From Deltaproteobacteria bacterium (lineage in GTDB: Bacteria; Desulfobacterota; Desulfobacteria; C00003060): 7,075 nt of DNA. Positions 6,057 through 7,075 of this stretch are shown here, one piece after another (position 1 is the first letter of the stretch; each line of letters starts with the position of its first letter). The translations under genes were made by a program, and so were the position numbers. The notes beneath the pieces were generated by a model. The model had not been told where the DNA came from, searched no databases, and saw only the letters and a program-made list of their open reading frames with translations. The stretch covers positions 1 to 7,075 of the forward strand of contig DAOUWN010000109.1 of the NCBI GenBank assembly GCA_030667105.1. Direction: 5' to 3'.

Positions 6057-6413
6057 TCAGATTTCTTTAAGACATTGTTCCATTAGGGTTACATAATACT
6101 CGACGATACCATTAACTAGACAGTAGCAAACACGGGGGCGATCGATTTCACCCTTTATCCAACCCGTTTCTTTAAGAACTTTCAGGTGCTGGGAGACAGT
6201 GGACTGTGCAAGAGGAAGTGCATCTACAATGTCGCCACAAACACATTTCGCATCCGATGGACGATTGGCAAGCATACCCACAATCTCAACACGTGCAGGA
6301 TGGGCAAGCCCCTTGGACAGTTGGGCCAATTTCTTTCTGCACTCGCCAATGGGCAATGTGACAATGGTTTTTATGTCGGCTGCATTACATTTTTTTGTCA
6401 TTTTCGTAGTCAT
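6057..6413 (-). CDS. arsR: ArsR/SmtB-family arsenic-responsive repressor (copy 3)
   Basis: A 118-residue repressor of a different ArsR subgroup from the other two. Helix 1 is LSKGLAHPARVEIVGML (32-48). The sensor region has KCVCGDIVDALPL (Cys57, Cys59), the recognition helix is AQSTVSQHLKVLKETG (69-84), and the wing contains PRVCYC (Cys96, Cys98), a second cysteine pair typical of this subgroup. Cys9 and Cys25 lie in a longer N-terminal arm. These cysteines suit trivalent arsenic. The ATG at 6413 shares its A with the arsM stop (TGATG), and there is no Shine-Dalgarno site, so translation should depend on ribosomes finishing arsM. A GTG at 6419 is an alternative start but lies inside arsM. The gene is therefore probably a feedback regulator of the arsM-arsR operon, whose promoter lies beyond the right edge. 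Confidence 0.91.
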   Translation of the reverse strand: MTTKMTKKCNAADIKTIVTLPIGECRKKLAQLSKGLAHPARVEIVGMLANRPSDAKCVCGDIVDALPLAQSTVSQHLKVLKETGWIKGEIDRPRVCYCLVNGIVEYYVTLMEQCLKEI

Positions 6414-7075
6414 CAACACTTTTTAGTAGTCGGTTTTCGTGCTGTTATGTAGCCGGAAAATACAAGATGTTCAGTGCCCTCCTTGAAATTCCAGTTCTTA
6501 ATTATTTCTTCACTGTTCTCTTTCCTTGTGATGGAAACGGATTCAAAGCCCAACCTGTTCAGAATCTGTCTCACCTCGTCGGGTGAGATTGCTCCTGCAA
6601 TTCAGCCGGTGTAAGCGGAAGGGTCCTCTTTGAGATCCTTTGGGATATCTCTCGAACGTAAAACATCAGAGATGCTAATTCGGCCACCTGGCTTGAGGAT
6701 CCTGAAGATTTCTCCATAAACAGCCCTCTTATCAGGTGAAAGATTGATCACGCAGTTTGAAAGAACGACATCCGCTGAATCGTCCTCAACGGGCAAGTGT
6801 TCTATTTCTCCCAGTCTGAACTCAACATTTTCGACATCAAGCCGTTCGGCGTTTTCTTGAGCTTTGCTTATCATCTCAAGCGTCATGTCTACGCCGATAA
6901 CCTTTCCCTCTGGTCCAACGCTTTTCGCGGCAAGGAATGCATCGAATCCAGCGCCACTTCCTAGGTCGATAACCTGCTCGCCTGGTTGTAGGTCAGCAAT
7001 GGCAAGAGGGTTTCCACATCCAAGCCCAAGGTTGGCATCTCCCAACCCAATGGTCAGTTGGTCTTTGGTATAGCC
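6413..7075 (-). CDS. arsM: Arsenite S-adenosylmethyltransferase, selenocysteine-containing, N-terminus off the right edge
   Basis: ArsM transfers methyl groups from S-adenosylmethionine to As(III). The visible 220 codons start within GYTKDQLTIGLGDANLGLGC and contain GCGNP (fragment Cys20), the SAM-binding loop DLGSGAGFD (37-45), the acidic GVDMT and the arsenic-binding cysteine in LSNCVINLSPDK (Cys108). At fragment codon 158 (6602-6604) the frame has TGA in the context YTG-x-IAGA, exactly where ArsM has its second essential As(III)-binding cysteine. The frame then continues with ArsM-like sequence (SPDEVRQILNRLGFESVSI to SGYITARKP) and stops at 6413. SECIS-like hairpins follow the TGA directly. 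I read the TGA as selenocysteine; stopping there would remove the last quarter of the enzyme. The stop overlaps the arsR start. A true nonsense mutation is the alternative, but the intact downstream frame, exact position and hairpins argue against it. Confidence 0.88.
6570..6601 (-). promoter_or_regulatory. Putative bacterial SECIS element (two tandem hairpins after the UGA of arsM)
   Basis: Directly after the UGA the mRNA can form ATTGC-AGGA-GCAAT (6601-6588), then CTCACC-CGACGA-GGTGAG (6587-6570), both with perfect stems of 5 and 6 bp. In the second, a G is the second base of the apical loop, 22 nt after the UGA. This falls in the spacing and loop rule known for bacterial SECIS elements recognised by SelB. 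The hairpins also encode ArsM residues IAGAISPDEVR. Confidence 0.75.

What the first reader, a model, noticed from the sequence alone, without database searches (positions are those of the whole stretch)
6413..7075. arsM encodes a selenoprotein: Sec replaces the conserved arsenic-binding cysteine
Seen: an in-frame TGA at 6604-6602 in YTG-TGA-IAGA, followed by 62 sense codons that continue as a normal ArsM C-terminus to a stop overlapping the next gene. Known: ArsM/AS3MT enzymes bind As(III) with cysteines equivalent to LSNCV and the cysteine of this (C)xxGA motif. Inference: the selenolate replaces that second thiol, which could change arsenic affinity, methylation rate or the final product, and would link arsenic detoxification to selenium supply. 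I cannot verify whether selenocysteine ArsM has been characterised.
Basis: partly seen in the sequence, partly recalled or inferred. Interest (0 to 1): 0.93.

Follow-up and report, generated by a model that had tools for sequence, protein, structure and literature searches.

The report
Selenocysteine arsenite methyltransferase coupled to repressor
A predicted arsenic-methylating enzyme gene has an in-frame UGA codon, likely read as selenocysteine, exactly where related enzymes carry an arsenic-binding cysteine; such selenium-containing versions are already listed in reviews, so this is a new member of a known kind, and the newer point is that the predicted arsenic-repressor gene overlapping its end would probably need that read-through to be made efficiently.

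Summary
Minus strand 6413-7075 is the 3' part of an arsM gene. Its in-frame TGA (6604-6602) is followed by 62 sense codons and a TGA stop that shares one base with the ATG of an arsR-type gene. The TGA aligns with Cys224 of the solved algal ArsM, a published arsenic ligand. Of the 120 listed best protein hits, 57 end exactly there (one is the window's own), 61 have Cys, 2 Trp. In 85 genomes, 16 of 26 ArsM matches have TGA and 10 Cys. A conserved hairpin meeting the published bacterial SECIS rules follows. In relatives with TGA-arsM, SelB was found in 14 of 15 genomes, SelA in 17 of 18, SelD in 15 of 18; the window's own genome is not held, so its Sec machinery is untested. Selenocysteine ArsM is already known: a 2026 review lists it as experimentally verified (UxxG). 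What I did not find in print is an arsM-UGA-arsR unit: one-base overlap here, a longer overlap and a full in-frame fusion in one related genome. It would place the repressor downstream of the Sec codon and could tie arsenic control to selenium supply; that step is inference.

The parts
6413..7075 (-). 3' part of arsM (arsenite methyltransferase, NCBIfam NF008823), 5' end cut by the window; final stop TGA 6415-6413
   Evidence: NF008823 301.9 bits against a cut-off of 263; PDB ArsM chains 5evj, 4kw7, 4fr0, 5eg5
6602..6604 (-). in-frame TGA, predicted selenocysteine codon; aligned with Cys224 of C. merolae ArsM
6752..6754 (-). Cys codon of LSNCV, aligned with Cys174 of C. merolae ArsM (arsenic ligand)
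   Evidence: alignment; ligand role from PMC3877260 passages
7016..7018 (-). Cys codon of LGCGN, aligned with Cys72 of C. merolae ArsM (arsenic ligand)
   Evidence: alignment
6569..6588 (-). predicted bacterial SECIS hairpin: 7-bp stem (6588-6582 with 6575-6569), 6-nt loop, 20 nt between UGA and loop
   Evidence: rules from PMC13188914 Fig 2 legend
6057..6413 (-). arsR-type repressor gene, ATG start sharing one base with the arsM stop (GTG 6419 and TTG 6416 possible); none of six Shine-Dalgarno-like motifs found upstream of the three starts
   Evidence: HTH_metalloreg, 53.8 bits, just under the cut-off of 55; PF01022, 41.4 bits, over its cut-off

Best explanation
This is a predicted arsenite methyltransferase gene (arsM) whose in-frame TGA, at the column where relatives carry an arsenic-binding cysteine, is likely read as selenocysteine under the direction of a predicted SECIS hairpin just downstream. 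Shown by sequence: the TGA, its alignment with Cys224, its conservation as TGA or Cys in genome matches, the conserved hairpin, and the one-base overlap with arsR. Inferred: SelB would bring Sec-tRNA to the UGA; the selenolate would be one of three ligands of As(III), with the Cys72 and Cys174 equivalents as the others, while a methyl group is moved from S-adenosylmethionine to arsenic. Also inferred: because arsR starts at the arsM stop and shows no ribosome-binding motif of its own, efficient repressor synthesis would depend on ribosomes that have passed the Sec codon.
For: Column states: 57 of 120 listed hits end at the column (window's own P0005 included), 61 Cys, 2 Trp. In 85 genomes, 26 matches: 16 TGA, 10 Cys, no other state. 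A degenerate DNA pattern for the TGA motif matches 10 of 395 genomes of the phylum, its backward control none. Hairpin: 16 of 17 Sec sequences form 7 of 7 pairs and one 6 of 7; the 10 Cys genes form 0 to 3 of 7. With 20 sequences 99.3% of cells pair (0 of 500 shuffles reach that), against 50.7-60.0% for slid partners, and one pair changes on both sides in 5 sequences. Random synonymous codons reach the observed pairing in 1.0-1.5% of draws per sequence, 17 sequences. MFE of the 48-nt stretch is -15.7 kcal/mol, z -3.83. Tree of 146 rows: the label Sec needs 3 changes, all forced by starred branches, readable as one gain and two losses; the window lies in an all-Sec set of 33 rows (98/84). Sec machinery in relatives. 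Ligand roles of Cys72, Cys174 and Cys224: PMC3877260, passages. Listing as verified selenoprotein: PMC13188914, passages.
Against: The Sec machinery of the window's own genome could not be looked for. SelB is also present in 7 of 8 searched genomes that have only a Cys-ArsM, so it does not discriminate. G047 lacks a SelB match; G001 lacks SelA and SelD; G025 and G081 lack SelD at the thresholds used; completeness is not told. tRNA-Sec was tested in two genomes only, and the model also passed its cut-off in 5 of 14 control genomes. The Cys control genes are diverged in protein sequence there, so part of the hairpin contrast may reflect the peptide ISPxEV; the synonymous-codon result is modest and the sequences are related. 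Only one of seven pairs shows a two-sided change and four never vary; two of the five covariation measures (pairs with a two-sided change, further pair types) are reached by 443 of 500 shuffles. A 61-nt stretch folds otherwise (z -1.23), and many single relatives have no low z-score. No Rfam family rang at the hairpin. arsR coupling: copy 2 in G002 does have a GAGGAG motif before its arsR, and in the L002 fusion 6 in-frame start codons follow the TGA, 2 of them with a Shine-Dalgarno-like motif, so some ArsR could be started internally there.
Confidence: 0.93

Rival explanations
1. The TGA is a nonsense mutation or a sequencing error, and arsM is a pseudogene or makes a shortened protein.
For: Another gene in the same window, acr3, is interrupted by an in-frame TAG at 5610-5612, so broken genes or base errors do occur in this record.
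Against: The same column holds TGA in 16 of 26 genome matches and a protein end in 57 of 120 listed hits; the sequence after it is under purifying selection; the cut product would lose an arsenic ligand.
Confidence: 0.03
2. The organism reads TGA as tryptophan or another residue throughout (a changed genetic code).
For: Two database relatives were stored with Trp at the column (P0002, P0003), as a gene caller would give under code 4 (inference).
Against: 4 of 10 genes examined in the window end in TGA, arsM itself included; 61 of the 63 listed hits that continue past the column have Cys; a SECIS-type hairpin follows the TGA.
Confidence: 0.01
3. Sec-ArsM is real, but the overlap with arsR is only compact gene packing and repressor synthesis does not depend on read-through.
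For: Short overlaps are common in bacteria (general knowledge). Of the 16 Sec-arsM matches, 13 show no ArsR-like next gene (first ORF of 70 codons or more within 300 bases, judged by eye), L024 cannot be judged because its contig ends 50 bases on, and only L047 and L025 (both in G002) have one. G002 copy 2 has a Shine-Dalgarno-like motif for its arsR, and the L002 fusion has possible internal starts.
Against: No such motif before any of the three possible starts in the window; full in-frame fusion in L002 and 10 of 120 listed proteins that join an ArsM tail to ArsR.
Confidence: 0.5

Closest known systems
Selenoprotein arsenite methyltransferase (NF008823, motif UxxG, WP_011987699.1; PMC13188914 Table 1, experimentally verified, citing Fomenko et al. 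2007)
   Same: Same family model, Sec at a UxxG motif (here UIAG), one Sec
   Different: New sequence from a metagenomic contig; the arsR overlap is not mentioned in the passages I saw. I did not see Fomenko 2007.
Arsenite S-adenosylmethyltransferase selenoproteins of the Global Ocean Sampling (PMC2398784)
   Same: PRK11873 arsM listed as a selenoprotein family; the first count in its table row is 8 (passages; the column headings were not in view)
   Different: No column, hairpin or arsR context in the passages seen
NCBIfam NF041537 ArsM_AhpD_UU, NF041536 ArsM_DUF2284_UU, NF047649 MTase_UXPK_star
   Same: ArsM-like domain with Sec at UxxG
   Different: Those carry a further domain and 2 or 3 Sec; the window fragment scores 158-171 bits against cut-offs of 460-575
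C. merolae ArsM (PDB 4kw7, 4fr0) and human AS3MT
   Same: Cys72, Cys174, Cys224 ligand positions of C. merolae ArsM aligned
   Different: Cys224 is replaced by the UGA codon
ArsRM of Brevundimonas sp. M20 (PMC10190100)
   Same: One protein with ArsR and arsenic methyltransferase domains that binds its own promoter (passages)
   Different: ArsR domain first, methyltransferase second (domain ranges), no word beginning with 'selen' in the text. In L002 the order is ArsM, Sec, ArsR; in the window the two are separate overlapping genes

Membership tests
Arsenite methyltransferase ArsM (NF008823) | Score over the curated cut-off | tested here: met
   301.9 bits against 263, although the N-terminus is cut
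Arsenite methyltransferase ArsM (NF008823) | Three arsenic-ligand positions, Cys72, Cys174, Cys224 in C. merolae numbering | tested here: met
   Cys, Cys and the UGA codon aligned; met if UGA is read as Sec
Arsenite methyltransferase ArsM (NF008823) | Methylates arsenite | not testable with these tools
   needs an enzyme assay
Bacterial selenoprotein | In-frame TGA aligned with Cys in homologues | tested here: met
   61 of 120 listed hits Cys, 10 of 26 genome matches Cys
Bacterial selenoprotein | TGA-containing homologues in other organisms | tested here: met
   16 of 26 matches and 3 further genomes
Bacterial selenoprotein | bSECIS: 3-9 nt loop, 4-16 bp upper stem, G in the first two loop positions, 16-37 nt from UGA to loop, MFE at most -7.5 kcal/mol | tested here: met
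   6 nt, 7 bp, loop CGACGA, 20 nt, -10.2 kcal/mol for the 26-nt hairpin; rules
Bacterial selenoprotein | selA, selB, selD, tRNA-Sec in the same genome | tested here: inconclusive
   own genome not held; relatives: SelB 14 of 15, SelA 17 of 18, SelD 15 of 18
Bacterial selenoprotein | Selenium in the purified protein | not testable with these tools
   needs mass spectrometry or selenium labelling
ArsRM-type fusion | ArsR and ArsM in one polypeptide | tested here: not met
   in the window a TGA stop separates them; met in L002 with the opposite domain order

The most novel reading that the evidence does not exclude
The Sec codon is a selenium gate on arsenic regulation: the repressor is made, as an overlapping gene here or as the C-terminal domain of an ArsM-Sec-ArsR fusion in relatives, by ribosomes that insert selenocysteine, so selenium shortage would both cut the enzyme short and lift repression of the arsenic genes.
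Probability: 0.17. Interest if true: 0.75.

Novelty: new member of a known kind. Interest (0 to 1): 0.42.

Why it matters
It adds a well-supported case, from a clade many of whose members are stored cut at the UGA (57 of the 120 listed best hits), to a known selenoprotein family in which selenium sits in a metalloid-binding site and not in a classical redox motif. The arsM-UGA-arsR units would, if confirmed, link selenium supply to arsenic gene control, and they offer a natural two-gene reporter to test that.

Tried and rejected
Pyrrolysine reading of the TAG in acr3 (5610-5612): no support. All 120 listed best homologues are open across that column with one and the same ordinary residue, and two window genes end in TAG. 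A search for a pyrrolysine-linked corrinoid family in two relatives, G001 and G002, gave nothing over the cut-off. The TAG is most simply a nonsense change or a base error.

Rfam scan of the window: one weak match only (HIV-1_SL3, 24.7 bits against a gathering score of 33), taken as chance. No other family matched at E up to 5, so the SECIS claim rests.

SelB presence as a discriminator between Sec and Cys genomes: does not discriminate. Hairpin z-scores of single relatives are mixed. Structure prediction was not run: its described output gives no coordinates to measure ligand distances.

Rows left out: P0005 (the window's own protein) from the tree; L038 (partial) and 75 of 120 pairs (saturated or without a usable dS) from the dN/dS medians. 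In the tree, proteins that end at the column and the two Trp rows were labelled Sec; for the protein-only rows the stop codon itself was not seen. SelB was not sought in G155, G422 and G440.

Papers: Fomenko 2007 was seen only as an entry in a reference list. Haft and Tolstoy 2025 (PMC12013261) and the Olavius paper (PMC1976440) are not held. That I found no arsM-UGA-arsR unit in print rests on the listings and the passages only; the library is partial.

Full report
What is there. The minus strand of 6413-7075 reads as the 3' part of an arsM gene. It passes the NCBIfam arsenite methyltransferase model NF008823 (301.9 bits, cut-off 263) even though its start lies beyond the window. An in-frame TGA at 6604-6602 stands in YTG-TGA-IAGA and is followed by 62 sense codons and a TGA stop at 6415-6413. 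A database protein, P0005 (205 aa, identical over the 157 residues before the TGA, longest contig 24,496 bases), supplies the missing 48 N-terminal residues and ends exactly at the TGA, as a standard gene caller would leave it.

The column. The phmmer alignment with the solved C. merolae ArsM (4kw7) runs without a gap from query 107-182 to chain 173-248, which puts the TGA on Cys224; two other Cys of the window align with Cys72 and Cys174 (positions counted from the printed alignment). PMC3877260 (passages) states that Cys72, Cys174 and Cys224 are the arsenic-binding sites of that enzyme and that neither C174A nor C224A is active in either methylation step. Of the 120 listed best homologues, 57 end at this column (P0005 included), 61 have Cys and 2 have Trp. 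In 85 genomes of the class of G002, 23 genomes gave 26 matches at E <= 1e-60: 16 with TGA and 10 with Cys. A degenerate DNA pattern for the motif found 11 places in 10 of 395 genomes of the phylum, three of them new genomes, and its backward control none.

The hairpin. PMC13188914 (Fig 2 legend) gives the bacterial SECIS rules: loop 3-9 nt, upper stem 4-16 bp, a G in the first two loop positions, 16-37 nt between UGA and loop, energy at most -7.5 kcal/mol. The window has 6 nt, 7 bp, CG at the loop start, 20 nt, and -10.2 kcal/mol for the 26-nt hairpin or -15.7 for the 48-nt stretch (z -3.83). In 17 Sec sequences, 16 form all 7 pairs and one 6; the 10 Cys genes form 0 to 3. In 20 sequences 99.3% of cells pair, no shuffle of 500 reaches that, slid versions reach 50.7-60.0%, and one pair changes from U-A to C-G in 5 sequences. 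Synonymous recoding with the genes' own codon usage gives the observed pairing in 1.0-1.5% of draws per sequence. Against: the sequences are related, four of seven pairs never vary, two of the five covariation measures are reached by 443 of 500 shuffles, a 61-nt stretch folds differently, many single relatives have unremarkable z-scores, and no Rfam family matched there.

Reading beyond the TGA. Among 16 Sec sequences the median dN/dS is 0.12 before and 0.17 after the TGA in the 45 of 120 pairs that could be used, so the tail is kept as protein. 4 of 10 genes examined in the window end in TGA, which speaks against a changed code.

Machinery. No genome is held for the window. In relatives: SelB in 14 of 15 genomes with a TGA-arsM and in 7 of 8 with Cys only, SelA in 17 of 18, SelD in 15 of 18, each of the 15 SelD genes itself with one in-frame TGA. 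tRNA-Sec was sought in two genomes and passed its cut-off in both, but the same model also passed in 5 of 14 controls.

Family history. In a tree of 146 rows (75 labelled Sec, 71 Cys) the label needs three changes, all forced by well-supported branches, which can be read as one gain of Sec and two returns to Cys (the bootstrap had not fully settled).

The repressor. The arsM stop shares one base with the ATG of an ArsR-type gene, and none of its three possible starts shows one of the six Shine-Dalgarno-like motifs tested. In G002 copy 2 the arsR start lies inside the end of arsM, after a GAGGAG motif. In G002 copy 1 (L002, CP070673.1) arsM, the TGA and arsR are one frame, and Pfam finds both methyltransferase domains and HTH_5. 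Six in-frame start codons follow the TGA in the stretch scanned there, two with a Shine-Dalgarno-like motif, so internal starts are possible. Of the 120 listed best hits to that tail, 10 carry an ArsM C-terminus joined to ArsR; 8 of these 10 start at VRQIL or MRQIL, which in L002 is the GTG inside the 3' arm of the hairpin. In the class genomes, 10 of 11 matches to the tail at E <= 1e-25 cover only its ArsR part. Of the 16 Sec-arsM matches, only the two in G002 have an ArsR next to or joined to them; 13 do not and one cannot be judged. I infer that repressor synthesis in the window's lineage would depend on ribosomes passing the Sec codon.

What is known. PMC13188914 Table 1 (passages) lists arsenite methyltransferase, NF008823, UxxG, one Sec, under 'Experimentally verified', citing Fomenko et al. 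2007, which I did not see. PMC9312934 (passages) and PMC2398784 (passages) list it too. So the headline claim is right but not new. PMC10190100 (passages) describes an ArsR-methyltransferase fusion in the opposite order and without mention of selenium. The listings showed no title or abstract on a Sec codon between arsM and arsR; the library is partial.

Verdict. A well-supported selenocysteine ArsM, new member of a known kind.

Noticed in passing
window 4677-5891 (+), stop at 5610-5612: The ACR3-type arsenite transporter gene is interrupted by an in-frame TAG; intact copies exist in all 120 listed best homologues.
   Followed up: yes
L002 8001-8993: ArsM, in-frame TGA and ArsR form one open frame: a predicted ArsM-Sec-ArsR fusion; 10 of 120 listed proteins carry the same ArsM-tail plus ArsR joint.
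   Followed up: partly
P0004; P0011, P0012, P0014, P0017: Cys forms nested inside the Sec clade, readable as two returns from Sec to Cys.
   Followed up: partly
window 3-2306 (-): A run of redox genes beside the arsenic genes: DsbD-like, thioredoxin, MauE/DoxX, rhodanese, ArsE-type small thioredoxin; by eye, a similar thioredoxin follows Sec-arsM in L035, L036 and L037, and an apparently shortened one in L033.
   Followed up: no
window 2446-3618 (-): ArsP_1-type permease (PF03773, 246.8 bits) next to its own arsR-type gene at 3697-4056.
   Followed up: no
P0002, P0003: Relatives stored with Trp at the Sec column, as expected if a gene caller used code 4; others, P0054 and P0121 among them, are stored as arsenite methyltransferase ending at the column.
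   Followed up: no
SelD genes of 15 relatives: Each of the 15 SelD matches holds one in-frame TGA, so SelD itself is probably a selenoprotein there.
   Followed up: no
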